Source of the DNA: Acidobacteriota bacterium
Lineage (GTDB): Bacteria; Acidobacteriota; Terriglobia; Terriglobales; Acidobacteriaceae
DNA length: 64,000 bases
Assembly: GCA_018268855.1 (NCBI GenBank)
Contig: JAFDVR010000017.1
Span: 1 to 64,000, forward strand
Direction: 5' to 3'
Shown here: one piece after another, positions 4,089-53,099 of the stretch
How the letters are laid out: every line of letters begins with the position of its first letter
Position numbering within the stretch: the stretch's first letter is position 1
Program-made: the position numbers and the translations under genes
Notes under the pieces: model-generated
What the model saw: only the letters and a program-made list of their open reading frames with translations
What the model was told of the DNA's origin: nothing
Database searches by the model: none

Positions 4089-5066
4089 ATGAGCTTCGAT
4101 TTGATCCTCCCGTTCCTTCGGCCCATCGAGCAGTTGTTGCTTGACGACGGCGTGAGCGAGATCATGGGCAACCCCGATGGTTCGTGGTGGTTTGAAAAGG
4201 TGGGCAAGCTCACCTGCGCAGGGTCGGTTCGCTTCGATGCAAAGGCGCTTCGTACAGGACTTGAAATCATCGCCAATCACCTCGGAAAGCAGTTCGATGA
4301 ATCTCACCCGTTATTGAACGTACAACTCCCGGACGGAAGCCGTCTTGCGGCGGTGCTGCCGCCGGTCGTGCGCCCCGGTCCGTCGCTCACCATTCGCAAG
4401 TTTGCCAAGGTTCGCTATACCCTTGCCGACCTCATCGCGCGCGGTGCGCTCACTGAGGAAATGAGTGAGTTCCTGACAGAACAGATTCGCAGCGGAAAGA
4501 CGCTGCTCATCAGTGGCGGAACATCCAGTGGAAAGACCACTCTCCTGAATGCATTAGCGGATGCCATTCCAGAGGAAGAGCGCATCGTCGTGATCGAGGA
4601 TACGTCCGAGCTGCGCATCTCGAAGCCGAACGTTCTGGCCACCGAATGCCAGGTTGAGTCCCTTGCCGGAGTCGTGGACTTCGCCACGCTTCTGAAGGGC
4701 GCTTTGCGGTGGCGGCCAGACCGCATCATTTTGGGCGAGGTACGTGGCGAAGAAGCTCGCACGTTGCTGGATTCATTCAACACCGGGCACGGTGGCTCAT
4801 TGGCAACGATCCATGCCAATTCACCCACGAAGGCCCTGCGTCGATTCTGCGAGCTTGCTATGCGTTCGCACCAGCAATCGTTGCGCGATGACATCGCGGC
4901 GGAAGTTGCGGATTCCGTCGATTACGTCATCCAGGCGCAGCGTACTCAAGCTGGCCGTCGCATCACCGATGTTGCTCACGTCCAAGGTTTCTCGCGCGAA
5001 GCGAAATGCTTCTCGCTTGAGACGGTCTTTCCCAGCCTGCAAGAGTCATCTCTTTCCACCCACTAA
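4089..5066 (+). CDS. virB11: VirB11/TrbB-family secretion ATPase
   Basis: 325 residues. This hexameric traffic ATPase drives pilus assembly and substrate transfer at the inner-membrane base of the T4SS. The Walker A motif GGTSSGKTT starts at residue 143, a Walker B/Asp-box region IILGEVRGEE lies near 215, and the His-box SLATIHANSP near 238 follows. The N-terminal domain has the family phrase LLNVQLPDGSRLAAVLPP. Length is standard for TrbB/VirB11. GAGG before the ATG serves as ribosome site. Separation from virB5-virB6-virB8 by ssb is unusual but all genes share one direction. Confidence 0.93.
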   Translation: MSFDLILPFLRPIEQLLLDDGVSEIMGNPDGSWWFEKVGKLTCAGSVRFDAKALRTGLEIIANHLGKQFDESHPLLNVQLPDGSRLAAVLPPVVRPGPSLTIRKFAKVRYTLADLIARGALTEEMSEFLTEQIRSGKTLLISGGTSSGKTTLLNALADAIPEEERIVVIEDTSELRISKPNVLATECQVESLAGVVDFATLLKGALRWRPDRIILGEVRGEEARTLLDSFNTGHGGSLATIHANSPTKALRRFCELAMRSHQQSLRDDIAAEVADSVDYVIQAQRTQAGRRITDVAHVQGFSREAKCFSLETVFPSLQESSLSTH

Positions 5067-5077
5067 AGGAGGTTGTA

Positions 5078-5392
5078 ATGCCACTCATCGAAGTCACTCA
5101 AACCCGCCGCGTAACGGCCCACGTTCGGTTCAATGAACCCATCGTTATGCAGATCAACCAATACGCTGCTTTCATCGGTGCAACTCCCGATGAGGTCATC
5201 AACAAAGGTCTTGAATACCTGTTTGAAAAGGATCGCGAGTTTGCCACGTTCCGTACATCCGATCGTTGCAAGGATGTCCCAGAGCTATTGAAGGCCCGTC
5301 GCCCGAATGGTTCTAAGGCGTCTCGTGGACCTGCTAAGAAGCCCTCAACATCGGTGGAACCCGGTGAGTCTGTGGCGGTTCGGAAAGCATGA
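5078..5392 (+). CDS. Small DNA-binding-like protein next to the candidate oriT
   Basis: 104 residues. It begins 11 bases after virB11 with AGGAGG as ribosome site. Residues 12-55 (TAHVRFNEPIVMQINQYAAF, then a second helix ending in a charged segment) suggest a strand followed by two helices, as in ribbon-helix-helix proteins. The C-terminal third is basic and Pro/Ser-rich (KKPSTS), likely flexible. Position between virB11 and the transfer-origin region suggests a relaxosome or regulatory protein. I do not recognise a named family; the fold is a guess from pattern and needs a structure prediction to confirm. Confidence 0.55.
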   Translation: MPLIEVTQTRRVTAHVRFNEPIVMQINQYAAFIGATPDEVINKGLEYLFEKDREFATFRTSDRCKDVPELLKARRPNGSKASRGPAKKPSTSVEPGESVAVRKA

Positions 5393-5560
5393 TGCTCCAT
5401 CGAACCCCTCGGCAGTACGGGAACCATGCTACGCATGGGGTGAAAGTTTACACTTCACCCCTCCAAGGGTCATGCAGGGTGCACTTAGGTGCACCTATTT
5501 AGAAACAACCACTTACCAAAGTCAGGTGCACGTAGGTGCACCTGGGATTTTGAGGTTTCT
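5393..5560 (+). other. Candidate origin of transfer (oriT)
   Basis: This gene-free stretch lies immediately before a small RHH gene, virD4 and a MOBF relaxase, which is the oriT-trwA-trwB-trwC order of plasmid R388. It contains overlapping inverted repeats: CCATGC (5424-5429) with GCATGG (5433-5438), and GGGGTGAA (5437-5444) with TTCACCCC (5454-5461), 9-base spacer. Two pairs of GGTGCAC direct repeats follow at 5478-5494 and 5525-5541. Relaxase hairpin plus accessory-protein repeats is the usual build of an oriT. The nick site itself cannot be read from this sequence. Confidence 0.6.
5478..5542 (+). repeat. Four GGTGCAC repeats in two tandem pairs
   Basis: GGTGCAC occurs at 5478-5484, 5488-5494, 5525-5531 and 5535-5541. 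Within each pair the copies are 10 bases apart, one helical turn, and each core GTGCAC is a palindrome. Such phased repeats suit cooperative binding by ribbon-helix-helix dimers, such as the protein encoded from 5561. They could serve in the relaxosome, in autorepression, or both. Confidence 0.7.
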
Positions 5561-5941
5561 ATGGCTCTCCTCGATCAGGAAGCTGCGGTGCCAGAAGGCA
5601 CAGAACCAAACCAAAATCGCGTATGCCCCGTCACTGTGAAGCTTACGCAAGAAGAGCATCGCCGGATCACCGAATACGCTAACGCTTTGGGGCAAGCCCG
5701 CAGCGAATGGTTGCGCGACGTTGCTCTCAAAGAGTTGGAACGAGCTACCGACACAAACCGGTTGCGCCCAGAGCTGGTGGAATTGGTCGGATTGCGGATG
5801 ATCCTTACCAACCTTTTGCGCCCAATTTCGCAGGCGAAGCCCATCACAGAGGAACGCTTCGAAGCCATCATGGCAGAGGTTCGTCGCAGCAAAGTGCAGG
5901 TCGCAAGCGACCTGGTTGCGAAGACAGAAGGAGGCCGCTGA
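5561..5941 (+). CDS. TrwA/MobC-like ribbon-helix-helix relaxosome protein
   Basis: 126 residues. The ATG at 5561 is chosen because GAGG lies 6 bases before it and the operator-like repeats end just upstream; a longer frame to 5489 would run through the repeats. Residues 20-50 (RVCPVTVKLTQEEHRRITEY, then LGQARSEWLRDVAL) fit the strand-helix-helix of plasmid mobilisation RHH proteins. By analogy with R388 TrwA it probably binds oriT, bends the DNA for the relaxase, stimulates the coupling ATPase and represses its own operon. Its TGA overlaps the ATG of virD4 (TGATG), showing translational coupling. Confidence 0.78.
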   Translation: MALLDQEAAVPEGTEPNQNRVCPVTVKLTQEEHRRITEYANALGQARSEWLRDVALKELERATDTNRLRPELVELVGLRMILTNLLRPISQAKPITEERFEAIMAEVRRSKVQVASDLVAKTEGGR

Positions 5942-8007
5942 TGCCGACACAATGGGGCCGCAAGGAGACCATCATCTGGCCACCGCATTCGCCCATCTAT
6001 ACCTATGGGGCGACTTTCCTGGCCGTCGTTCTTATGGGCGCATTTCTCTACATGCGGTTCGCCTTTGCCATGACACCGCTACAGCAGTTCTACACGCCGA
6101 TCTACATGCGGACCTCGCTCTCCGCCGAGCTTGGTAAGACCCGCAAGGATAAGTACCGGATGCTCTTCGAGGCAGGAAAGAATGTTCCTACAAAGCCTGC
6201 CGTGGAACCAGATGTTCTGCCCGGGGTCACCGAGCAACCGGGAACGAAACCGATTCCGCTGACGCTGACCGAAACCGCAGCCCGGCAGGGGTACATTGCT
6301 CTTTATCGAGGCGCAGAAAACAGCTACTTCGATGTCCCGCTGCGCGATTATCTTCGCCAGAGCGTGTATGGTGGCAACACGCTATGGGACATCTATAAGC
6401 AGCCGTTTGGCTTCGGCTTGCTCGCCCTTCTGGCTCAGCTTCCTTTCTCCATTCGGAAGGACATGAAGCGCCGCCGCGAATTGAAATATGGCCGGCGCCT
6501 GAAAGGGCCGGTGATGCTCACGCCTAAGCAATTCAACGGAACGATCGCCGGCGAAGGCATCGGGTTCAAGACCACCGAGGCAAAAGATTTAATGCGGATT
6601 CCGGCGCGTTACGAGTCGCAGCACATCGAGTTGATGGGCGACACCGGAGCCGGAAAAACCACTCTGATTATGCAGATACTTCGGCAGATTCAAGGCCGGG
6701 GACACACGGCCATTGTGTACGACCCGGCGTGCGAGTTCATTCAGAGGTTCTATGACGAAGGCCGTGGCGATATCGTCCTGAATCCCCTCGACAAGCGTTG
6801 CCCGTATTGGGGGCCAGCCGAGGAACTGCGCAGCAAGGCCGAAGCAAAGACGCTCGCCAAATCGCTCTACCAGCCGACCGACACCCAAAAGGACGAGTTT
6901 TTTACCAAGACGCCGCAGAAGATTTTTGCCCATCTCCTGCGCACTGGTCCGACTCCCCATCAACTCGCAGAGTGGATGGCGAACCCGGCTGAAATCGACA
7001 AACAAGTCGTCGGTACGGAGATGGCAACCATGATTGCCAAGGATTCGCCGCCGCAGCGTAACGGCGTGTTGTCGTCTCTCGGATTGGTGGCGGACAGCCT
7101 ACGAATGCTTCCCACTCTGGAAGAAGCGGAGGGCCGAAGGTGGTGCGCCACGGAGTGGGCCGATCAGCGCAAAGGTTGGATCTTCATCACATCGCGTCCG
7201 ACCGAGCGCGACGCTCTGCAGCCGCTTCATAGCCTTTGGATTGACTGGCTCGTTTTGCGGCTCCTGAGTGCTCCGAAGGAACACCAAACCCCGGTCTGGT
7301 TTGTGTTGGATGAGCTGGCCAGCCTCCAGCGGTTGCCACAGCTTCATACCGCTATAACCGAAAATCGGAAGTCGAAAAATCCGCTGGTGCTGGGCTTCCA
7401 GGGCAAGGCACAGCTCGAAACCATCTACGGTCATCTTGCCGAGGTGATGCTGTCGCAGCCTGCCACCAAAATCTTCCTGAAGACCACAGAGCCGAAGGCT
7501 GCCGAATGGGTGTCCAATGCCATCGGGAAGGTCGAAATCGAACGCATGAAAGAGACGCACTTCGATGGCACGCGCAACGGGAAAAATTTCACCATCGACC
7601 GTCAGGTGGAACCGCTTGTGCTCGATTCCGAAATCAGCGGCCTTGAGGACCGGCGTGCGTACTTGAAGCTCGGCAATAACGTAGCTCGCTTCGCATTCGA
7701 TTACCTTGACCTGCCTGTTGTGGCAAAGGATTTTGACCGTCGTGCGGTGGCCGACGATGAACTGGACTATGACCCACAGCGTATGTCCAAAGCCATCGTC
7801 CCGCCGTCACCCACAGTCGATCTGGAAGACGAGGAAGCTCCGCACATTCCCGCCCCGCCAACAGTAGAAACGCCGATTGCGGTTGCCACTCAAGCGGAGA
7901 TGCCCAAGCCCGATCCTGTGATGCCGCTGCCTCAGCCCGACGACCTATCCACCCCCATCTTTCCTCAATTTGTCGTCGCAGGCGATGGTCGATTTGAGCA
8001 CGAGTAG
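5941..8007 (+). CDS. virD4: VirD4/TrwB-type coupling protein
   Basis: 688 residues from the ATG at 5941; an in-frame extension upstream overlaps the RHH gene and is not used. N-terminal membrane segments (about 20-40 and near 155-170) anchor a cytosolic hexameric ATPase. Walker A GDTGAGKTT starts at residue 233 and Walker B FVLDELASL at 454, in the TrwB/TraD DNA-binding AAA domain. It brings the relaxase-DNA complex to the secretion channel. The C-terminal about 100 residues are Pro- and acid-rich and probably disordered, possibly for partner recognition. It is flanked by the RHH and relaxase genes. Confidence 0.95.
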   Translation: MPTQWGRKETIIWPPHSPIYTYGATFLAVVLMGAFLYMRFAFAMTPLQQFYTPIYMRTSLSAELGKTRKDKYRMLFEAGKNVPTKPAVEPDVLPGVTEQPGTKPIPLTLTETAARQGYIALYRGAENSYFDVPLRDYLRQSVYGGNTLWDIYKQPFGFGLLALLAQLPFSIRKDMKRRRELKYGRRLKGPVMLTPKQFNGTIAGEGIGFKTTEAKDLMRIPARYESQHIELMGDTGAGKTTLIMQILRQIQGRGHTAIVYDPACEFIQRFYDEGRGDIVLNPLDKRCPYWGPAEELRSKAEAKTLAKSLYQPTDTQKDEFFTKTPQKIFAHLLRTGPTPHQLAEWMANPAEIDKQVVGTEMATMIAKDSPPQRNGVLSSLGLVADSLRMLPTLEEAEGRRWCATEWADQRKGWIFITSRPTERDALQPLHSLWIDWLVLRLLSAPKEHQTPVWFVLDELASLQRLPQLHTAITENRKSKNPLVLGFQGKAQLETIYGHLAEVMLSQPATKIFLKTTEPKAAEWVSNAIGKVEIERMKETHFDGTRNGKNFTIDRQVEPLVLDSEISGLEDRRAYLKLGNNVARFAFDYLDLPVVAKDFDRRAVADDELDYDPQRMSKAIVPPSPTVDLEDEEAPHIPAPPTVETPIAVATQAEMPKPDPVMPLPQPDDLSTPIFPQFVVAGDGRFEHE

Positions 8008-8012
8008 ATGCC

Positions 8013-11000
8013 ATGTTCAAAGTCGCTCCAGAACCGCTCACGGCCGGGAAAGCGCAGGAGTATCACGTCAAAGAGTTCATTGCTGCCGAAAAGAACTACT
8101 GGAAAGAGCACGAACAAATTCCTACCGGATGGCAAGGAAAATTAGTGGACACCTTTGGTCTCAAAGGTGACGTCCGGGCCAGCCAATTTTCCTTACTGAG
8201 CGAAGGCCAGCATCCCATAACAGGCCAGCAGCTCATCCAGCATCGCGACGGGAAGGAATACACGAACGCCGAAGGCGAGACGGTCAAACCGCTTGAGCAT
8301 CGCGCCGCATGGGACGCTACTTTCTCCGCGCCGAAGTCCGTCTCTCTTACGGCTCTGGTAGGTAGGGACAATCGCGTGCGGGAAGCACATCGCGAAGCCG
8401 TCTCGATTGCGCTGACGGAGTTGGAGCGGTACACGCAGGCCCGGCTAGGCGGCAACCGCCCTGCCGAGACTACGGGTCGTTTTCTCGTCGCAAAATTTGA
8501 ACATGACACAGCGAGGCCGGTTGATGGCTACGCCGCGCCGCAGCTCCACACGCACACCGTCATCTTCAATATGACGACGCGGGAGGATGGTTCTTTCCGC
8601 GCTCTTCAATCCCACAGCTACTATGCGTCCCAGCAGTTTGCGACCGCCGTGTATCAAGCCGAACTGATGTACCGCCTGCGGAACCTTGGCTATGAAATCC
8701 AGGCCGGAAAGAGCGGAGCACCGGAGATCAAAGGCTACACGCAGGATTACTTGGACGCTTCCAGTTTACGCCGCCAGAAGATCGAAGAAGAGATGGCCAA
8801 GCGTGGTCAGAGCGGCCCGGAAGCGGCTCAGTTTGCCGCGCTCACCACCCGCGACCGCAAACAGCACCTTGGCCCGGAAGAGACTTTAGCCGCGCATCGC
8901 AAGCTGGCCGAAGAGTATGGCAACCAGCCCGAGAAAGTTATCGCTGCCGCACAGGAACGAATGCAGCAGCGCGGCCAGGAACAGGCACACAAGCCCGACG
9001 AGCAACAGCAGCGCGTGCGCGAAAGCGTGAGCTTTGCGAAGGCCCGCAACTTTGAGCGCGAGGCCATCACCGACGACCGAGGCATCATGCGCGACGCCTT
9101 ACGTCGCGGCATGGGCGATGTGACGTATGCCGAGATTCGCGAGAATTTCCGGCGCCGAGAAGCGATGGGCGAGTTCTTGAAGGTCGATAGTCCACGGCAC
9201 TATGCCGGGCAGCGGTATACCACTCGCGACATGCTCCAGGCCGAGCGCAGCAATATCGAGTTCATGAAGCGTGGGCAGGCCGTCGTGACGCCGATCATGT
9301 CAGCGGAAAGTGCCCGCTCTCATGCTGCGGAGCAGGAGCGGTTGAATCCTGCCCAACGTCGCGTTGTGGAGGAGGTACTGAGCACTACCGACCGCGTACA
9401 CGGTTTGCAGGGTTACGCGGGTTCAGGCAAGACCGAGAGCTTACGAACCATCCGGGCCGGGGCCGAGGCCGAGGGCTTTGCCGTCGAGGGTTTCGCACCG
9501 ACGAACCGTGCTGCGAACCAGCTCCGTGACGCCGGAATCAACGCGGAAACCTTGCAGCGGTTTCTTGCTCGCGGTGCAACGGGCGAGACAGCGGGAGATC
9601 CCGCCAGCCGCCATCTCTACATGGTCGATGAGTCCAGTTTGACAAGCACGAAACAGATGCAGGCGTTCATGGAGAAGCTGGGGCCGCAAGATCGGGTTCT
9701 GTTGATTGGTGACATTCGCCAGCACCAGGGCGTGGATGCGGGAAAGCCCTTTGAGCAACTGCAAGCGGAAGGGATGCGTACTTCGCAGCTTGACCAGATC
9801 ATGCGCCAGAAAGAACAGCCGGAATTGCTCCGTGCTGTCGAATTACTTTCGCAAAACCACACCGTGGACGGAGTGCAGTTATTGCAGGAGCAAGGGCGCG
9901 TGCAAGAGTATGCGGGACGCCCCGAACGCATCGCTGCGATTGCCCGCGCCTACGTCACGCAGTCAGAGAACACGCTTGTCATCTCGCCCGACAACGCCAG
10001 CCGCATGGAGCTGAACCAGGCGATCCGCGCGGAGCTGCGAACGGTGGAAGCGCTGCGCGGAATTGACCGCGAATTCGCTGTGCTCATGCCCCGATCCGAC
10101 CTCAGCAGCGCAGATCGAGTTTGGGCGGCGCAGTATCAGCCCGGCGATGTCCTCCAATACACACGCGGCAGCAAGGAATTGGGCTTGGAGCCGTACAGCT
10201 ACGCGACCGTACGTGACGTGGATACGAAGCTGAATCAGATCACCGTGGAGCGTGAGGACTGCGGTCAGGTTTCCTATGACCCGAAGCGGCTGCAAGGCAT
10301 TACCGCCTATCGGGAAGTGACACGCGAGTTTGCGGAGGGCGACCGGATTCAGTTCACGACCAACAACCGTGAACTGCAAATTGCCAATCGCCAACTCGGA
10401 ACCATCGAGAGTATTCGTCCGCACGAAATGACCGTGCGCGTTGAGGGGCAAACAGCGCGCTCGGTTTCATTCGATCCTCAGCAAATGAGGCACTTCGATC
10501 ATGGCTATGCAGTGACATCGCATAGCTCGCAAGGATTGACGGCAGACCGTGTGCTTATCAACGTGGAGGTCTCCGCTCACCGCGACCTCATCAACCAACG
10601 CTTCGCCTACGTCGCGGTCTCTCGCGCGGCGCATGATGTGCAGCTCTATACCGACAACGCCGCGCGGCTGACCAAAGACCTTAGCCGCGATGTCTCAAAG
10701 ACTGCGGCGTTAGAACCCACTCAACAAAAAGCCGAACAGCCAAGAGGTGAGATGATGACCTACCGCAAAGAACACGTGGAAGGGATGCAGCCCTATCAAC
10801 CAACTTCCCATGTGCCGCCATCCGTCTATGCCACGTCTCTTGACCGGGAGACCGTACTTACCGATCTTCGGTGGTCGCAGGAGCAAGCCAGAAATGGAGT
10901 AGACCCTGCTGACACCGCACGCGCCATCACGGAACGGCATCAGCATGATTCTGAGCCGGAGCACAATCAGCGTGCACTCATCGAGCGCTATGCTGACCGC

Positions 11001-11366
11001 GTTACAGAACTTGCCTACAGAGGGCCAGACATTCCGGTAGACCTGCAAGCCACGCACCTTGAACCGACTGCCGAGGAAAGGCGGCATTGGGAGCCGTTGG
11101 TTCAATCTATCGGGATAGAACATGCGGAGCCATTTGCATGGCGGAAAGAGCATGCGGAAATTCAAAGCTATCGGAATGACCAGAATCCCGGCTGGCTACA
11201 CATCGACGCGCATGGCCAATTCTTCGACCGAAACGCGCAGCCCATCGCTGCGCAGGCGGCGCTGGAACCATTTGGACTCTCAACGGCAATCACACGAGGC
11301 AACGAACAAAGCGCAGGAATCAACAAAGACGGACCAACGGACAGCGGATACGGCATTTCGCTCTAA
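8013..11366 (+). CDS. traI: MOBF (TrwC/TraI) relaxase-helicase
   Basis: 1117 residues. The N-terminal TrwC relaxase domain (about 1-300) has a candidate catalytic Tyr17 (EYHVKEF) with Tyr29 as second tyrosine, and the metal-binding PQLHTH motif with His179 and His181. A second domain is a RecD-like helicase with Walker A GYAGSGKT at 467-474 and DESSLTS near 540; the UvrD-C-like motif HSSQGLTADRVLIN lies near 835. The C-terminal 200 residues are unlike known domains to me. It nicks oriT, stays attached to the 5' end and unwinds the strand for transfer. It starts 5 bases after virD4 and the ribosome site is weak, so coupling is likely. Confidence 0.95.
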   Translation: MFKVAPEPLTAGKAQEYHVKEFIAAEKNYWKEHEQIPTGWQGKLVDTFGLKGDVRASQFSLLSEGQHPITGQQLIQHRDGKEYTNAEGETVKPLEHRAAWDATFSAPKSVSLTALVGRDNRVREAHREAVSIALTELERYTQARLGGNRPAETTGRFLVAKFEHDTARPVDGYAAPQLHTHTVIFNMTTREDGSFRALQSHSYYASQQFATAVYQAELMYRLRNLGYEIQAGKSGAPEIKGYTQDYLDASSLRRQKIEEEMAKRGQSGPEAAQFAALTTRDRKQHLGPEETLAAHRKLAEEYGNQPEKVIAAAQERMQQRGQEQAHKPDEQQQRVRESVSFAKARNFEREAITDDRGIMRDALRRGMGDVTYAEIRENFRRREAMGEFLKVDSPRHYAGQRYTTRDMLQAERSNIEFMKRGQAVVTPIMSAESARSHAAEQERLNPAQRRVVEEVLSTTDRVHGLQGYAGSGKTESLRTIRAGAEAEGFAVEGFAPTNRAANQLRDAGINAETLQRFLARGATGETAGDPASRHLYMVDESSLTSTKQMQAFMEKLGPQDRVLLIGDIRQHQGVDAGKPFEQLQAEGMRTSQLDQIMRQKEQPELLRAVELLSQNHTVDGVQLLQEQGRVQEYAGRPERIAAIARAYVTQSENTLVISPDNASRMELNQAIRAELRTVEALRGIDREFAVLMPRSDLSSADRVWAAQYQPGDVLQYTRGSKELGLEPYSYATVRDVDTKLNQITVEREDCGQVSYDPKRLQGITAYREVTREFAEGDRIQFTTNNRELQIANRQLGTIESIRPHEMTVRVEGQTARSVSFDPQQMRHFDHGYAVTSHSSQGLTADRVLINVEVSAHRDLINQRFAYVAVSRAAHDVQLYTDNAARLTKDLSRDVSKTAALEPTQQKAEQPRGEMMTYRKEHVEGMQPYQPTSHVPPSVYATSLDRETVLTDLRWSQEQARNGVDPADTARAITERHQHDSEPEHNQRALIERYADRVTELAYRGPDIPVDLQATHLEPTAEERRHWEPLVQSIGIEHAEPFAWRKEHAEIQSYRNDQNPGWLHIDAHGQFFDRNAQPIAAQAALEPFGLSTAITRGNEQSAGINKDGPTDSGYGISL

Positions 11367-43189: not shown

Positions 43190-43577
43190 CGGATCGCCAG
43201 ACCGACCCGCGAGAACGCGAATTCTCATGAGATGCATCGGTTCGGGACGGAAGGAAGTTTCCTTCCGCGCTGCAGCCGCGTTCCGCGTCTTGGCTCCTTT
43301 CTCTAGCGGGCCTGTTCCTGCCCGCAACGCCGGCCCTTGCTTCTAGGGGCGCTTCGCACGCAATAAGGAAGACAAGCCTCGCTAAGGGGCGCTGCCCCGA
43401 TCGCGCTCTCCAAGGCCATCCGCCCTCCGGGTTTTGGCTCCCCCGCAAGCGGTCCCCCCAAAAAGCTTCGCTCCGAGACCTTTCCGTTTGCTACCCCCGC
43501 CTTCGCCAGGAGGCGTTCGGCATATGCATGCCGCGATTTCACGCGGAAAAGCAAAAGCCAACCAAGGAGCAGACACC
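43190..43577 (+). other. Hairpin-rich non-coding leader upstream of ardC
   Basis: 388 bases without a supported gene. Stems: GAGAA/TTCTC (43211-43226), CGGAAGGAA/TTCCTTCCG (43248-43267), GGGGC/GCCCC (about 43386-43398), GGCAT/ATGCC (43519-43532) and CCGCG/CGCGG (43531-43546). The first two could end the merR transcript. The last two sit 30-60 bases before ardC. Length and density of hairpins mirror the ssb leader. Confidence 0.5.
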
Positions 43578-44486
43578 ATGACCACACCCGCCGCCACCCC
43601 CATCGACAGCAAGAAGCCAAGCACCAAGCAGGAACTCATCGCCGCCAACGTCAAGCTCTTGATTGAGCAGTTGGAAGCCGGACACTCCGGTGCCCTCACC
43701 GACTACCTCACGGCCATGAGCCGCTTTCATAACTACAGCTTCGGAAACGTGCTGGAGATCGCACGGCAGATGCCCACCGCAACCCGTGTTGCCGGGTTCT
43801 GGACGTGGAAGCAACTTGGTCGCAACGTGAAGGCCGGGCAAAAAGGCATCCGCATTTTGGCTCCCATCGTGGGCGTTCGTCGCAAGAAAGACGAGGAAGC
43901 CAACAAGGACATCACCAAGCAGAATGAACGGGTCTTAGTTGGGTTCCGCAATGCCTACGTCTTCGACGTGTCGCAGACCGAAGGCGCAGACCTACCGGAG
44001 ATGCGCGGAATTTCCGGCGACCCCGGCGAGAACTCGGAACGGCTTGCCGCCTTTGTCCGTTCGCGCGGCATCACGCTTGTCTATAACCCGAACATCGCGC
44101 CAGCCCTCGGCATGAGCTACGGCGGACGCATTGCCATCTTGCCCGGACAGTCCAAGGCCGAGGAGTTTTCGACGCTGGTGCATGAGACAGCGCATGAGCT
44201 GCTGCACAAGGCGGAGCGACGCACCGCGACCACGAAGACCGTACGCGAGACAGAGGCCGAGGCTGTGGCTTTTGTCGTGGGTAAAGCCGTGGGTTTGGTG
44301 ACGGGTTCCGCCTCCGCCGATTACATCCACCTGTATCACGGCAACGCATCGCTTCTGGCCGAGAGCTTGGAAGTCATTCAGCAGACCGCCGCCGTCATCC
44401 TTGCAGCGTTGGAGCCACCTGCTGAGGATGAGGAAGAAGAGACAACCTCCACCGAAACCCCGGAACTCGCGGAGGTGGCGGCATGA
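43578..44486 (+). CDS. ardC: ArdC-family antirestriction protein
   Basis: 302 residues from the ATG at 43578 (AGGAG 8 bases upstream); an in-frame extension lies in the hairpin leader. The N-terminal ArdC ssDNA-binding domain (about 10-130: LSRFHNYSFGN-type phrase, GFWTWKQLGRNVKAGQKGI, ILAPI) is followed by a zincin-like domain with HETAHE at 202-207 and downstream ETEAEAVAF. ArdC protects incoming plasmid strands from host restriction. It overlaps the next gene by 4 bases. Confidence 0.92.
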   Translation: MTTPAATPIDSKKPSTKQELIAANVKLLIEQLEAGHSGALTDYLTAMSRFHNYSFGNVLEIARQMPTATRVAGFWTWKQLGRNVKAGQKGIRILAPIVGVRRKKDEEANKDITKQNERVLVGFRNAYVFDVSQTEGADLPEMRGISGDPGENSERLAAFVRSRGITLVYNPNIAPALGMSYGGRIAILPGQSKAEEFSTLVHETAHELLHKAERRTATTKTVRETEAEAVAFVVGKAVGLVTGSASADYIHLYHGNASLLAESLEVIQQTAAVILAALEPPAEDEEEETTSTETPELAEVAA

Positions 44487-44896
44487 AAACCATCCTTGCC
44501 ATCTTGCACAAGGCCGGAGGTTGGCGACCCAACCTCTACGTCAAGATTGAGAACCCGCCCTATCTGCCGCTAGTCATCGAAGCGGCGGATGAATCTGGCC
44601 CGCTCGGTCTGCCCTCGCTCTCCGTCGCGCACTACAGCCAGCAGAATGGCGATCCCATGCGGGACCCGGAGATGTGCTTTGAGTTGGGCTTCGCCGGGAG
44701 CGCACACCTGATTCCGTACTACTGGCGTAATGACTACGTTGCGGTCGAGCAATGGAGCCGCAACATCATCCGCGACCACTATGTGGCCCTGTTGGAGTTG
44801 CAGAAGCAGCACGAGAAGTTTGCGGAGACATGGGACAACAATCTCCGCTTGCAGGGCTACGAAGCAGCCTTCACGGACAAGTGCATTCTCGGCTAG
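44483..44896 (+). CDS. DUF6908-type protein
   Basis: 137 residues, soluble. KIENPPYLPLVIEA, PLGLPSLSVAHYSQQNGDPM and RDPEMCFEL match DUF6908 proteins, which recur next to ardC and parB-like genes on plasmids and ICEs. Function unknown. It is coupled to ardC by an ATGA overlap, suggesting use at the same stage of transfer, possibly antirestriction. The protein is acidic and has no visible catalytic motif. Confidence 0.75.
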   Translation: MKTILAILHKAGGWRPNLYVKIENPPYLPLVIEAADESGPLGLPSLSVAHYSQQNGDPMRDPEMCFELGFAGSAHLIPYYWRNDYVAVEQWSRNIIRDHYVALLELQKQHEKFAETWDNNLRLQGYEAAFTDKCILG

Positions 44897-44981
44897 TCCG
44901 CTCCCTTGGAGCGGAACCCATGCCCGACGTGCGCCGCTCTGTGACCATCCCCCCGCAACCGCTCGAAAGGAGCACACCATC

Positions 44982-46577
44982 ATGCAAACCCAAGTTATCA
45001 ACGCCACCGAATATCGCGACGTTTCGCTCTCGCTGTTGTCCGAGTCCAAGACCAACCCGCGCCGCATCTTTGAGGACGCTGCATTAAAAGAACTGGCCGC
45101 GTCCATCCGCAGTCAAGGCGTCCTGTCTCCCTTACTTGTGCGTCCGCTCACGGAACACGGCTTTGAGATTGTGGCAGGTGCCCGACGCTTCCGCGCCGCG
45201 CAGATGGCCGAAGCGGAGACGGTGCCCGTTCGCATCGTGGACTTGAGCGATGCCCAGGCGCTAGAAGCGCAGTTGATTGAGAACCTGCAACGCAAGGACG
45301 TTCACCCGATGGAAGAGGCCCAAGGCTTCCGTGCGCTTCTGAACTTGGAGGAGCCGAAATACACCGTCGAGCAGATAGCAGCCAAGATGGGCAAAAGTCC
45401 CGCATACGTGACCACGCGCCTCAAACTTACCGACCTTGCGCCCGCTGTCGTCGAAGCGTTCTACGCGGAAGAGATTGGCGTCGGCCATGCTCTCTTGTTG
45501 GCGAAGCTCCAACCCGATCAGCAGGAACAGGCACTCTCCGCTTGCTTCAAAGAGGTCTACAACGGCGAACGCAAACCGACACGCATTCTGCTGCCTGTCC
45601 GCAACCTGCAATTCTGGATTGACACCAACATCGTCCTCGCGCTGAAAGAAGCTCCGTTCGATAGGAAGGATGCGCAGCTTGTGCCAGCAGCCGGAAGCTG
45701 CATCGACTGCCCCAAGCGCACAGGCCACAACAAGCTCCTGTTCTCGGACATTGGCGGCAAACTCGATTCCTGCACCGACCCCACCTGCTATCAAGCGAAG
45801 GTTGCGGCGCACGTCTCCAAAACCATCGCGGCGAAACCGAACCTTGTTCAGATCAGCACCGCCTACGGTCAACAGAAGGAAGATAGCGCGGTACTCCCAC
45901 GCAATCGGTACACGGAGATTCGTGCGGAGAAGCCAGCCGATAGGGACGAGGCGAAACGGCCTGAGTTCAAGTCGTGCAAGTTCACCTCGGATGCGATTGT
46001 GACCGATGGAACGGAAGTCGGAACCATGCGCAAGGTCTGCACCAATTCCGCTTGCCCTGTCCATCATCCTCAGCCACAACGCAATGACCGGGATGAGGAG
46101 AAGTGGAAGGCCGAGCAGGAGAAGCGCCGCCGCGACGAGGCCATTGCCAACACAACCGGGCTTCGCGTTCTCGCCGCCATCAGTGCCGCCGTCCCGGTGC
46201 GTCTGATGAAGCGTGACCTTCTCTTCATCAATACCCAACTCGCGGAGCTTGTCGGAGAACCGCGTCTGGAAGTCCTGGCCAAGCAGCACGGCATCAAGCG
46301 GTCAAAGGATGCGGACAACATCGGCAAACTCTTCGCTGCCTATCTTCGCCGTGCCGATGAAGGCGCTCTCTCCCGCATTGTCGTGGAGCTGACCATCATT
46401 CTGACCGCCGCGCGGACGAATGCGCCGAGCATTCTTCGCGAAGCGGCCACCATCTACAAGGTGGATACCGATACCATCGCGCAGAAGGTCAAGGCGGAAT
46501 TTGCAGCCAAGGCAAAGGCAAAGAAAGAGGCCAAGCCAGCCGTCAAGGTGCCGCCCAAAGTTAAGAAAGCGGCATAG
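44982..46577 (+). CDS. parB: ParB/RepB/Spo0J-family protein with zinc-like Cys motifs
   Basis: 531 residues from the ATG at 44982 (AAAGGAG 9 bases upstream). The nuclease-like ParB N domain has LKELAASIRSQGVLSPLLVR, GARRFRAA and ENLQRKDVHPMEEAQG; a helix-turn-helix follows (YTVEQIAAKMGKSPAYVTTR). Then come CIDCPKRTG with SCTDPTCY, and later CTNSACPVHH, probably zinc sites, absent from chromosomal ParB. The C terminus is Lys/Ala-rich. No parA is seen, so it may regulate or aid element maintenance rather than classic partition. Confidence 0.88.
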   Translation: MQTQVINATEYRDVSLSLLSESKTNPRRIFEDAALKELAASIRSQGVLSPLLVRPLTEHGFEIVAGARRFRAAQMAEAETVPVRIVDLSDAQALEAQLIENLQRKDVHPMEEAQGFRALLNLEEPKYTVEQIAAKMGKSPAYVTTRLKLTDLAPAVVEAFYAEEIGVGHALLLAKLQPDQQEQALSACFKEVYNGERKPTRILLPVRNLQFWIDTNIVLALKEAPFDRKDAQLVPAAGSCIDCPKRTGHNKLLFSDIGGKLDSCTDPTCYQAKVAAHVSKTIAAKPNLVQISTAYGQQKEDSAVLPRNRYTEIRAEKPADRDEAKRPEFKSCKFTSDAIVTDGTEVGTMRKVCTNSACPVHHPQPQRNDRDEEKWKAEQEKRRRDEAIANTTGLRVLAAISAAVPVRLMKRDLLFINTQLAELVGEPRLEVLAKQHGIKRSKDADNIGKLFAAYLRRADEGALSRIVVELTIILTAARTNAPSILREAATIYKVDTDTIAQKVKAEFAAKAKAKKEAKPAVKVPPKVKKAA

Positions 46578-49088: not shown

Positions 49089-50801
49089 CTATGCGGGGCC
49101 AACTAAGGATCTTGCGCCGTGAGGGCGGAGGATGGTGACGCGACTCCTCGCGCGAGTCAGTCCGACACGCAATAGCCTTCTGCTGCGTTCGTATGGGTAC
49201 ACTTCTTTTCTCTCATCGAAGAACTGCGATTTAAATGCCCCCTCAATCAGCACAACACCGTCAAATTCTTTGCCTTTGGACTTGTGAATGTTCATCAGAA
49301 TGCAACCGCGCGGATCGCGTTCGACGGCGATCAGCTTCTCTTGTTCGAGAATGCCTTGGACAAGATCGCTGACGCCCTCATAGTTGCCGCTGGCAAGCCA
49401 CTTGTTCAACAGGCCACTTGCCAGTGCATCGGTCGCTCTGAACAGCCGGACAAGTCTCACCTCACGGAACAATTCACCTAAAGCGGAAATATCTTGTAGG
49501 ACGCGGCGCGCGCTCTTCCAATCAACAACGGGATCTCCAACCAGCTGAAGGCCTCTTTGGTGCAACGCCAGCATCTCTTTCGCGGCATTGATGCGGGGCT
49601 TCTCCTCACCGGCCACTTTCGCCGCCGCGGCCTCATATTTCTGTGCAACCTCGGCCGCAGTCTTCGTGGGTTCTTCTGCGTTCTTCAGTTTGTAATAAGC
49701 CGCGATGCAGCGAAGGGTTTTCGAGACCGACTTCTGCGATGGCTGCGTCGGCCATTCCAGGATGGATGCCACGACGATCGCGGCAGCCGCGGACAACTCC
49801 GCATCCCAGACAACATCGTGCTCGATGACAGGCAAATCCCGTCCGTTGTAGGAATGAGACTCCGAAAGAATCATCGAAATGTCAGAAACCAGCGCGTTGC
49901 TGCGTGAAAGGACTGCAATGCTCGGATTCTGTACACCCAATTTCCGAAGCTCAGAAAACGTGAAGACCACGCAAGCATGCACGGTTGAGGCAAATGCGCG
50001 CGGCCAGTAGCGGACTTGCGTGATGTCTTCTGTCTCGGGAAGGGGCGTCTGATTGTGCAGCACCGCATTCGCGAACTTTAGAATCCCTGCATTGGGACTT
50101 CGATGATTCTCGCCTCCGAGATCGAACTCGCGAGGCGCGAGCGCTGTACGCAGCCCATCGACGCGCAGCGGATCGATATCGTCCCTGTAATCGAAGATTC
50201 TCTGATCGGGGTCGGCGAGACAGAAGATGTCCGCCACCTTGGACAACTGCGCGACGATGCGCCACTGGTTGTCATCCGTGTCCTGGAATTCATCGACAAT
50301 GATCATCGGAAAGCTGTCGCCGATCAGGTTTCGTAGTGCTGTGCATCTCTCTAACAGCTCTGCTGTACCGTGCGCGAACAGATCGAAACAGTAGACTCCT
50401 GCTTCCTTTGCCTGTCTCTGCCGTTCTACCTCCCAATCTCCATCAAAGGCAGCTTTCTGTAGCCGCTCGTCGCCGGGATACAGGAAACGAACTGGACGTC
50501 CTACCAACAGTCGCCCGTGGGCACGCAGGATATCCATACAGAAGGAGTGATAGGTCTGGACTGTTACGGCGCGTCTCTCTGCTGGCTTCAGAATTTCCTT
50601 GCAACGAAGCAACACCTGGCGGATTGCAGCTCGCGAGAAACTCAGGAAGAGGATCTCCTGGCCCGGCTTCAGTGTGGGGAAACGCTTTTGTGCTTTGAAC
50701 AACGCAACTGTCGTCTTACCAGACCCCGGCCCTCCGAGGACGAGAAGGTGACCCGGCTCCGCGATGATCGCTTTGCGTTTATCACACAGCTGAAAGTTCA
50801 T
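49089..50801 (-). CDS. UvrD-like helicase, GajB-type partner
   Basis: 570 residues. SF1 helicase motifs: Q-region, Walker A GGPGSGKTT (about 23), Ia YHSFCMDIL, II IIVDEFQDTDD (about 165), III ADPDQRIFDYRDD, and the C-terminal IHKSKGKEFDGVVLIEG and LRVGLTRARS. Its start overlaps the OLD gene by 4 bases. In Gabija systems the helicase GajB joins the GajA nuclease into one complex that cuts phage DNA when nucleotide levels fall. Size is a little above usual GajB (about 490-500 residues). Confidence 0.88.
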   Translation of the reverse strand: MNFQLCDKRKAIIAEPGHLLVLGGPGSGKTTVALFKAQKRFPTLKPGQEILFLSFSRAAIRQVLLRCKEILKPAERRAVTVQTYHSFCMDILRAHGRLLVGRPVRFLYPGDERLQKAAFDGDWEVERQRQAKEAGVYCFDLFAHGTAELLERCTALRNLIGDSFPMIIVDEFQDTDDNQWRIVAQLSKVADIFCLADPDQRIFDYRDDIDPLRVDGLRTALAPREFDLGGENHRSPNAGILKFANAVLHNQTPLPETEDITQVRYWPRAFASTVHACVVFTFSELRKLGVQNPSIAVLSRSNALVSDISMILSESHSYNGRDLPVIEHDVVWDAELSAAAAIVVASILEWPTQPSQKSVSKTLRCIAAYYKLKNAEEPTKTAAEVAQKYEAAAAKVAGEEKPRINAAKEMLALHQRGLQLVGDPVVDWKSARRVLQDISALGELFREVRLVRLFRATDALASGLLNKWLASGNYEGVSDLVQGILEQEKLIAVERDPRGCILMNIHKSKGKEFDGVVLIEGAFKSQFFDERKEVYPYERSRRLLRVGLTRARSRVTILRPHGARSLVGPA

Positions 50802-52645
50802 TCTGCGGCAGGCTCCGGCGTAAGCAGTGCGGGCGCTGCAATTTCTTCGGGAACCGCTTGGAGTTCCTTGTGGATCGTCGTGAGGATGTCACGGATAGTC
50901 TTGGGCAATTCGTCTGCGGTCTTGCACTGGCCAATCAAAAGCGCGGCGTACCCATATGCATCGCCCTTTCTGGCCTTCAGCACTTTGAGTGCAAGCGCCA
51001 GGACGGTGTCGTCGGTCATTGCAGCGTCATACTTTGGTTCGTTCGGGTAGTCGGCCTTGTCTTTCGCTGTATCGAGGAAGCGGCGGACAACAGCAATCGG
51101 CATTTCATCCAGAAGAAGGGCTTCAATTCCTTTTTGCGGAGACTCCCAATATTGCGTATAGCTAGCAAGGTTCTTCGTAGCCTCCTCTGTGAGCGCAGCG
51201 TTGGGCTGATCGTAGAAGCCGAATGACAGTTTGCCCAGTGCGGAGAATGTGGGGCCGTAGCGAGGAACCGCACCATCGCCTCCAGCGTTGAAGACTGTTA
51301 CGCCCGCCAAATCCAGATGCATGTAATCCTCAGGCGGCAGCTTCTCTTCGAGGACCGTGGAGGCAATGGGAAACAGCGAGGCCTCGGTTGAACCTTCCAC
51401 TACCAGGACCGCACGGCTCAGAATCGCCTCGGCGAACTGACGCCGTTCGACGCGGAAACTCTTCGGCTTGATCGCCGTGTGATCGATTGGTTTTCCTGTC
51501 AGTTGGCCGTCATGGTCACGGTCAAGAATCACAATTTGCGTAGGCTCGAACTGCTCAATGACGTAGGGAGAGTGGGAGGTGACGATAGATTGTCCCATCT
51601 CCGCCAATACAAAACGGGTCACTCTTCGCTGCGTGTGAGGTGGTAAAGCAATCTCAGGCTCTTCCATAGCGAAAATGACGGACTGCTTATCCTTCAATTC
51701 CGCAATGAAGGTGAGTAAAGCGAAGACGAGAAGATTTATGGAACCAGTGCCGAGACGCCCAAACGGGACAAGATGCTTGCCCGGCTGAGCGGCAATGAAC
51801 AAGCGGACAACTTCGCGCACATGCTCACGCGTGAGATCGGATGCGAAGAAGCCGGTTGATTCGTCGCCGGCTGCGAGATTCACGAAACGTCCCATGCGGG
51901 CACGAATCTCTTCACGAATCTGTTTGAGCTGTGCGATGTCTCCGATTGCTGGGTCAAGGGCCTGGAGCCGCCCGAGGGTGTCTTGCCACATCTCGACCGA
52001 GCCTGAGCCGCCAAGCCGCAACACGCTGTCCAGAAGGGAACCTCTCTGAAGGCTTAGCGCTCGGGAGCCCGTCCGCAACGTTCGCAGAAAGACGAAGCCG
52101 CAAAGTCGCTTGTGACCGCGATTGAATGGCGCGCGACCTTGGCCTAATCTGCTTTCCACTTCATCATCCAGGGCATCTGCTTCGCCCAGGGGATGATCGA
52201 AAAAGGTGTTGCCAACAAAATCGTCCTCATCTTTGTCATATCTTCCAATGAAGACCAGCGGTAGAGCCCAAATCATGCCTTCGCCATCGGCCTTGTCAAC
52301 TGCTTCAGCAGCTTCATCGAGGAATGCGCACTTTTTGTCGTCCCAACGGCGAGCGTGTCCACGGAATCGGCGCTGGGCTTCCTCGGAGAGATCAACGAGT
52401 ATTGCTTCAATGCGAATCTCAATCGGATTACCATCGTTGTCCAGGTAACGGCCGCAGTAAAAGTCATGCTCATCGACGACCGGACGTCGGAATAGTCTCT
52501 CCGGGCCGAGAACCAGATCGAGCGCTTCGCAGATTGTTGACTTGCCGATGTTGTTGCCACCGACAAGCAATGTATGCCCGCTGAAGTCAACGGTTCCTTC
52601 GGCAACGCCACGGAAGTGGGAGATCTTCAACCGTCGTACACGCAT
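50798..52645 (-). CDS. OLD-family ATPase-TOPRIM nuclease, GajA-like
   Basis: 615 residues. N-terminal ABC-type ATPase: Walker A GGNNIGKST (29-37), Walker B FAMEEPEIALPP (about 325), His switch VTSHSPYVIEQF (about 356). TOPRIM domain: AVLVVEGSTEASLFP (about 415), NAGGDGAVPRYGP (about 460). This is a class 2 OLD protein because a UvrD-like gene follows directly. With it forms a Gabija-like anti-phage pair. It is the first gene of a minus-strand cluster to 47653 and lies next to the tRNA. Confidence 0.88.
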   Translation of the reverse strand: MRVRRLKISHFRGVAEGTVDFSGHTLLVGGNNIGKSTICEALDLVLGPERLFRRPVVDEHDFYCGRYLDNDGNPIEIRIEAILVDLSEEAQRRFRGHARRWDDKKCAFLDEAAEAVDKADGEGMIWALPLVFIGRYDKDEDDFVGNTFFDHPLGEADALDDEVESRLGQGRAPFNRGHKRLCGFVFLRTLRTGSRALSLQRGSLLDSVLRLGGSGSVEMWQDTLGRLQALDPAIGDIAQLKQIREEIRARMGRFVNLAAGDESTGFFASDLTREHVREVVRLFIAAQPGKHLVPFGRLGTGSINLLVFALLTFIAELKDKQSVIFAMEEPEIALPPHTQRRVTRFVLAEMGQSIVTSHSPYVIEQFEPTQIVILDRDHDGQLTGKPIDHTAIKPKSFRVERRQFAEAILSRAVLVVEGSTEASLFPIASTVLEEKLPPEDYMHLDLAGVTVFNAGGDGAVPRYGPTFSALGKLSFGFYDQPNAALTEEATKNLASYTQYWESPQKGIEALLLDEMPIAVVRRFLDTAKDKADYPNEPKYDAAMTDDTVLALALKVLKARKGDAYGYAALLIGQCKTADELPKTIRDILTTIHKELQAVPEEIAAPALLTPEPAAE

Positions 52646-53022: not shown

Positions 53023-53099
53023 GGGGACGTAGCTCAGTTGGTCAGAGCGCTGCCCTGTCACGGCAGAGGTCGCGGGTTCGAGCCCCGTCGTCCCCGCCA
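53023..53099 (+). tRNA. tRNA-Asp (anticodon GTC)
   Basis: 77 bases including an encoded CCA. Acceptor GGGGACG pairs with CGTCCCC, the D arm has AGCTCAGTTGGTCAGAGC, the anticodon stem CTGCC/GGCAG holds loop CTGTCAC, and the T arm has GGTTCGAGCC. The gene is intact. It separates the accessory block from chromosomal genes and may be the integration site, though no copy of its 3' end is seen elsewhere in the window. Confidence 0.97.

What the first reader, a model, noticed from the sequence alone, without database searches (positions are those of the whole stretch)
5393..5560. Candidate oriT in an R388-like oriT-RHH-virD4-relaxase module
Two overlapping inverted repeats (5424-5438 and 5437-5461) and two phased repeat pairs stand immediately before a small RHH gene, a TrwB-like gene and a MOBF relaxase gene, the same order as oriT-trwA-trwB-trwC of R388. 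The hairpin GGGGTGAA/TTCACCCC with 9-base spacer is a natural relaxase target.
Basis: partly seen in the sequence, partly recalled or inferred. Interest (0 to 1): 0.7.

Follow-up and report, generated by a model that had tools for sequence, protein, structure and literature searches.

The report
Conjugation start site, Acidobacteriaceae family
This is very probably the DNA start site for conjugation of a metal-resistance mobile element in an Acidobacteriaceae soil bacterium; it belongs to a previously unmapped, family-wide set of such sites, and some copies sit alone beside bacterial toxin genes.

Summary
The gap 5393-5560 lies between VirB11 plus an RHH-like gene and an RHH, TrwB/TraD-type, MOBF-relaxase operon. 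Its core (5424-5469) recurs upstream of related relaxases: in 32 near-complete Acidobacteriaceae genomes, 64 of 69 MOBF hits have it within 9 kb, and 63 of 66 pairs share one orientation. The GGGGTGAA/TTCACCCC hairpin is not conserved. What is conserved lies on the minus strand: a short stem (CCCT-NNN-AGGG), then exactly 9 nt (GTGAAGTGT here; GGG.TG..GTGT invariant in 34/34), fitting the R388 and F MOBF rule (GTATTGTCT/A, GTGGGGTGT/G). I place nic on the minus strand between 5450 and 5449. Unexpectedly, relaxase-less copies sit at the 3' end of RHS polymorphic-toxin loci, pointing into them (18 RHS clusters versus 0.14 expected). Whether those are mobilisable or relics is open. Nicking and transfer remain untested.

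The parts
5424..5469 (-). oriT core: conserved from the covarying hairpin to the GGG arm
   Evidence: Aligned in 34 loci; 87 dereplicated sites show conservation starting about 33 nt upstream of the ACAC anchor (top strand) and fading past the GGG arm.
5459..5469 (-). Short inverted repeat 5' of nic on the transferred strand: CCCT-TGG-AGGG (probable relaxase IR)
   Evidence: 94% of cells paired in 34 loci, but mostly invariant G-C, so little covariation.
5450..5458 (-). Nine-nt relaxase recognition stretch GTGAAGTGT
   Evidence: GGG.TG..GTGT invariant in 34/34; same length and position as GTATTGTCT (R388, PMC4814116, PMC4176350) and GTGGGGTGT (pSU233/F12, PMC7755788).
5449..5450 (-). Predicted nic: minus strand, between 5450 (5' side, T) and 5449 (3' side, A)
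   Evidence: By alignment to the R388 and F-type nic sites; inferred, not tested.
5424..5438 (-). Hairpin CCATGC-GTA-GCATGG, 11 nt 3' of nic on the transferred strand, GNA triloop
   Evidence: Covaries: whole-structure cells changed on both sides 28 versus 5.0 in shuffles, 24 of them in this helix; GNA loop on this strand in 55/72 sites, reverse orientation 0/72.
5437..5461 (+).
   Evidence: 70.6% paired versus 69.3% shuffled; only close relatives keep it.
5478..5543 (.). Two pairs of 10-bp phased GGTGCAC repeats: probable RHH binding sites, accessory oriT and operator
   Evidence: Repeats are kept with a similar RHH (L072) and replaced by GCGC-type repeats in L070, where RHH is 45% identical but the coupling protein 91%.
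5561..5941 (+). RHH accessory protein (NikA/TrwA-like)
   Evidence: PF21983 NikA-like, 1.7e-7, over cut-off.
5941..8007 (+). Coupling protein, TrwB/TraD type
   Evidence: PF10412, 7.4e-80.
8013..11366 (+). MOBF relaxase-helicase, 1117 aa
   Evidence: PF08751 5.9e-82; NF041492 over cut-off; R388 TrwC structure 1omh E 4.5e-35 with PQLHTH aligned.
5078..5392 (+). Conserved small gene on the other side of oriT; RHH-like
   Evidence: Conserved next to oriT in most related modules; model has helices 20-33 and 37-51; top structure matches are mostly RHH proteins (CopG, Arc, PutA) but E is 0.6 or worse.
4089..5066 (+). VirB11/TrbB-type ATPase of the transfer system
   Evidence: PF00437 6e-43; TIGR02782 2.9e-73, below its cut-off.

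Best explanation
5393-5560 is the origin of transfer of a MOBF conjugative element in an Acidobacteriaceae genome. Shown by sequence: position, module order, family-wide conservation, fixed orientation, covariation. Inferred: the RHH dimer binds the phased GGTGCAC repeats (bending the site and repressing its own operon). The MOBF relaxase recognises the minus-strand AGGG arm plus GTGAAGTGT and nicks between 5450 and 5449, staying on the 5' end. The transferred strand therefore runs leftwards (VirB11 side first, coupling protein and relaxase last). Its first feature, 11 nt in, is the stable GNA-loop hairpin at 5438-5424; its role is unknown. It may shape or limit the single-stranded region where the helicase part loads, or be a second relaxase contact.
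For: 64 of 69 MOBF hits in 32 genomes have the site within 9 kb; 63/66 in the same place and orientation, median 2.58 kb upstream. Model hits in 148/300 family genomes, 34/79 sampled genera. GGG.TG..GTGT invariant in 34/34; 9-nt spacing as in R388 and pSU233/F12 nic sites (PMC4814116, PMC4176350, PMC7755788). The stretch that an opposite-strand nic would need (9 nt after the strong hairpin) is variable, while the minus-strand stretch is near-invariant. Hairpin covariation. GNA loops only on the minus strand. Relaxase matches TrwC structures at 4.5e-35. Orientation agrees with the general rule that the relaxase operon enters last (established knowledge).
Against: No nicking or transfer data. 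Most relatives have C just after the predicted nic, whereas R388 needs a purine there (PMC4176350); the window itself has A. The 5' stem is only 4 bp and shows almost no covariation. A hairpin 3' of nic is not part of the R388 or F minimal nic site. Rule plus stem occurs by chance about 0.8 times per 64 kb, so the rule alone proves nothing.
Confidence: 0.8

Rival explanations
1. oriT as above, but nic is on the plus strand, 3' of the strong CCATGC hairpin acting as the relaxase inverted repeat.
For: That hairpin is the best-supported helix, and an IR 5' of nic is the MOBF rule.
Against: The nucleotides that would then touch the relaxase are variable; the transfer direction would send the relaxase operon first; GNA loops lie on the minus strand only.
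Confidence: 0.1
2. One reading: the GGGGTGAA/TTCACCCC hairpin is the relaxase target.
For: Perfect 8-bp repeat in the window and its closest relatives.
Against: Not kept across the family.
Confidence: 0.04
3. Only a promoter/operator of the RHH operon, no transfer origin.
For: GGTGCAC repeats abut the RHH start codon and change with the RHH protein.
Against: The core is kept apart from those repeats, keeps a MOBF-type nic motif, and also occurs without the operon.
Confidence: 0.03

Closest known systems
R388 oriT-trwABC (MOBF11)
   Same: Order oriT, RHH gene, coupling protein, MOBF relaxase; short IR, 9 nt, nic (GGTGC-GTATTGTCT/A); the minus-strand assignment puts the operon last in transfer.
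   Different: 9-nt sequence GTGAAGTGT rather than GTATTGTCT; shorter 5' stem; extra conserved GNA hairpin 3' of nic; T4SS genes also on the leading side; relaxase only distantly similar.
F-type (MOBF12) nic, e.g. pSU233 GTGGGGTGT|GG
   Same: Family consensus GTGGAGTGT is 8/9 identical to GTGGGGTGT; window version GTGAAGTGT 7/9; nic after the final T by alignment.
   Different: Base after nic A or C, not G; the RHH operon order is R388-like, not F-like.
Granulicella tundricola pACIX903/pACIX905 and Acidisarcina polymorpha pACPOL1
   Same: Same gene order and the same oriT core upstream; MOB-suite types pACIX903 and pACIX905 as MOBF conjugative; relaxase 49-58% identical.
   Different: Hairpin arms and RHH sites differ in sequence; no oriT was annotated in the stretches read (the plasmid gene tables list proteins only).
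Relaxase-less oriT copies on S. aureus plasmids (pWBG749 family; PMC4652767)
   Same: Precedent for oriT copies used in trans; comparable to the solo copies noticed here.
   Different: Unrelated relaxase family; those are plasmid-borne and shown to work.

Membership tests
MOBF relaxase (TrwC/TraI) | TrwC relaxase domain plus SF1 helicase | tested here: met
   PF08751 5.9e-82, AAA_30, UvrD_C_2; NF041492 MobF over its cut-off.
MOBF relaxase (TrwC/TraI) | Metal-binding histidine motif | tested here: met
   PQLHTH aligns with TrwC PQLHTH.
MOBF relaxase (TrwC/TraI) | Two catalytic tyrosines near the N-terminus | tested here: inconclusive
   Y17 and Y29 are candidates by eye; the local alignment starts after them or at Y29.
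MOBF nic site | IR, then about 8-9 nt, then nic after T on one strand | tested here: met
   CCCT-NNN-AGGG, 9 nt, GTGT; PMC4814116, PMC4176350.
MOBF nic site | Purine just 3' of nic (R388 requirement) | tested here: inconclusive
   A in the window, C in most relatives.
MOBF nic site | Cleavage by the cognate relaxase | not testable with these tools
   Needs biochemistry.
R388 Dtr module | Order oriT-RHH-coupling protein-relaxase | tested here: met
R388 oriT itself | Recognisable R388 nic sequence GTATTGTCT/ATAG | tested here: not met
   Window has GTGAAGTGT/AAAC; works like it, is not an R388 oriT.

The most novel reading that the evidence does not exclude
Acidobacteriaceae RHS polymorphic-toxin loci carry a MOBF oriT just behind the toxin-immunity region, oriented so that the immunity gene and toxin tip would be the first DNA to enter a recipient. 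A conjugative element supplying the relaxase in trans could then spread new toxin tips between cells, with the conserved RHS core available for homologous recombination.
Probability: 0.35. Interest if true: 0.82.

Novelty: new variant of a known kind. Interest (0 to 1): 0.56.

Why it matters
A nic site predicted to the base across a whole family makes mobility in Acidobacteria, abundant soil bacteria, directly testable and lets oriT be found without a relaxase gene. It gives a MOBF origin with an extra conserved hairpin on the leading end of the transferred strand. It also exposes relaxase-less origins attached to RHS toxin loci, which would be missed by relaxase typing and bear on how polymorphic toxin tips spread.

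Tried and rejected
Folding energy as evidence: weak on both strands. The 9-nt rule alone: about 0.8 chance hits per 64 kb. DNA similarity to plasmids at the nucleotide level: none for the 701-bp query. Rfam: no match. Papers searched for an acidobacterial oriT or an RHS-oriT link: none found in this open-access library, which lacks most subscription papers. An extended CAC/GTG pairing around the short stem was considered by eye and dropped as unsupported.

Full report
Setting. The window is the first 64 kb of a 790,714-bp contig of a 3.52-Mb genome. The nearest named relatives of its relaxase are Acidobacteriaceae plasmids: Granulicella tundricola pACIX903 and pACIX905, and Acidisarcina polymorpha pACPOL1. 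The gap 5393-5560 lies inside a transfer cluster: VirB6/TrbL, VirB8 and VirB11 to the left, then a 104-aa RHH-like gene, the gap, an RHH gene, a TrwB/TraD-type coupling protein and a 1117-aa MOBF relaxase.

Observation. Their folding energy alone is not exceptional, so I judged them by conservation.

Family. Most upstream regions of related relaxases carry a recognisable core. Read on the minus strand it is: CCCT-NNN-AGGG, then (G/A)TGnnGTGT, then about 11 nt, then a 6-bp hairpin. In 34 aligned loci GGG.TG..GTGT is invariant. Two nic classes recur on the plus strand, ACACTCCAYCCC and ACACGTCAYCCC; the second is the commoner one next to the more distant relaxases. A covariance model finds the window site at E 1e-18 as the only good hit, though that sequence is part of the model. 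It hits 148 of 300 family genomes in 34 of 79 genera sampled, and 15 of 199 genomes across the phylum, 12 of them from this family.

Link to relaxases. In 32 near-complete genomes, 64 of 69 PF08751 hits have a core within 9 kb; 63 of the 66 core-relaxase pairs have the core upstream with its conserved strand antisense to the relaxase gene, median 2.58 kb away.

Where is nic? R388 TrwC recognises a hairpin and the following 9 nt (GGTGC-GTATTGTCT/ATAG; PMC4814116, PMC4176350), and the F-type pSU233 nic is GTGGGGTGT|GG (PMC7755788). The minus strand here reads AGGG-GTGAAGTGT/AAAC in the window and mostly AGGG-GTGGAGTGT/C in relatives. This puts nic between 5450 and 5449. On the plus strand the stretch after the strong hairpin is variable, which argues against a plus-strand nic. 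The short stem is nearly invariant, so it cannot show covariation; its role is inferred from position.

The hairpin 5424-5438. Arms change together across relatives (CCATGC/GCATGG, CGGTGC/GCACCG, CGCTGC/GCAGCG, ATGCGC/GCGCAT): whole-structure cells changed on both sides are 28 against 5.0 in shuffles, 24 of them in this helix. In 72 sites with a 3-nt loop, the minus-strand loop is GNA in 55 and the reverse type in 0; the 4-nt loops are all GNNA. GNA loops make unusually stable DNA minihairpins (Yoshizawa 1997, cited in PMC6479982). This points to selection on single-stranded minus-strand DNA, the predicted transferred strand. Its job is not known; in F, TraI in its helicase form binds single-stranded DNA 3' of nic (PMC12117103), so shaping that region is one possibility.

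GGGGTGAA/TTCACCCC pairs no better than shuffled columns across the family. It is a feature of the closest relatives only.

RHH sites. GGTGCAC pairs occur with RHH proteins whose N-terminal strand reads NRVCPVTVKL (window, L072). In L070 the coupling protein is 91% identical but RHH only 45% (FRVITAGTKL), and the repeats are replaced by GCGC-type ones. This natural swap fits the repeats being RHH sites; it is one case.

Solo origins and RHS toxins. 28 model hits in the 32 genomes have no MOBF relaxase within 9 kb. I read 20 flanks: 18 of these hits plus two found by DNA similarity (L066, L075). Two are modules with a broken or missing relaxase (L107, L109). Of the other 18, 14 lie just behind an RHS/YD-repeat gene or toxin tip in the same orientation, 13 of them by YD-repeat density and L075 by its tip alone; four were checked by Pfam. 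Most, not all, have a separate small ORF called between RHS and oriT; for L110 and L111 my gene caller found none. Genome-wide, 18 of 45 RHS hit clusters have a core on their 3' side, antisense, against 0.14 expected; 3 other arrangements occur. RHS cores resemble each other in 62 of 66 pairs, tips in 0 of 66, as in polymorphic toxins. Complete or partial Dtr modules with RHS upstream also exist (L133, L143, L173), and L120 and L174 keep only pieces of a coupling protein, so decay of RHS-carrying elements is a serious alternative to active mobilisation. Hit lists were filtered by the model, so intactness of solo cores is not evidence of selection.

Limits. No experiment; model E-values are rough; the 32 genomes were chosen for contiguity and for having a hit, which inflates the oriT-relaxase co-occurrence; the literature library is open-access only.

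Verdict. oriT: very likely (about 0.95). Minus-strand nic at 5450/5449: about 0.8. New variant of a known kind.

Noticed in passing
L066, L075, L110, L111, L113-L115, L117-L123 (relaxase-less loci); own genome G000:C15:67154-67212: Solo oriT cores at the 3' end of RHS toxin loci, pointing into them; 18 of 45 RHS hit clusters in 32 genomes versus 0.14 expected.
   Followed up: partly
own genome G000: C8:5420, C20:188042, C17:73299, C15:67154: Four oriT cores; the first three have a MOBF relaxase, the fourth lies in an array of RHS ends.
   Followed up: partly
window 14321-41085: Cargo: multicopper oxidase, two AcrB-type pumps, P-type ATPase with heavy-metal domains, methyltransferase and low-molecular-weight phosphatase (arsenic-type by inference), Cad transporter.
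   Followed up: partly
window 49089-52645: Gabija anti-phage pair: GajB 1.1e-210 and GajA 1.9e-242.
   Followed up: yes
window 43434-46577: ArdC-type anti-restriction domain protein and a ParB-like protein, typical plasmid/ICE genes.
   Followed up: no
window 53023-53099: tRNA-Asp next to the Gabija genes; possible element boundary, not tested.
   Followed up: no
window 5078-5392: Conserved gene left of oriT looks RHH-like, so oriT may be flanked by two RHH genes; structural matches weak.
   Followed up: partly
L173 (Edaphobacter lichenicola M8US30): RHS, immunity-like ORF, oriT, RHH, coupling protein and relaxase start in one locus: an RHS-carrying Dtr module.
   Followed up: partly
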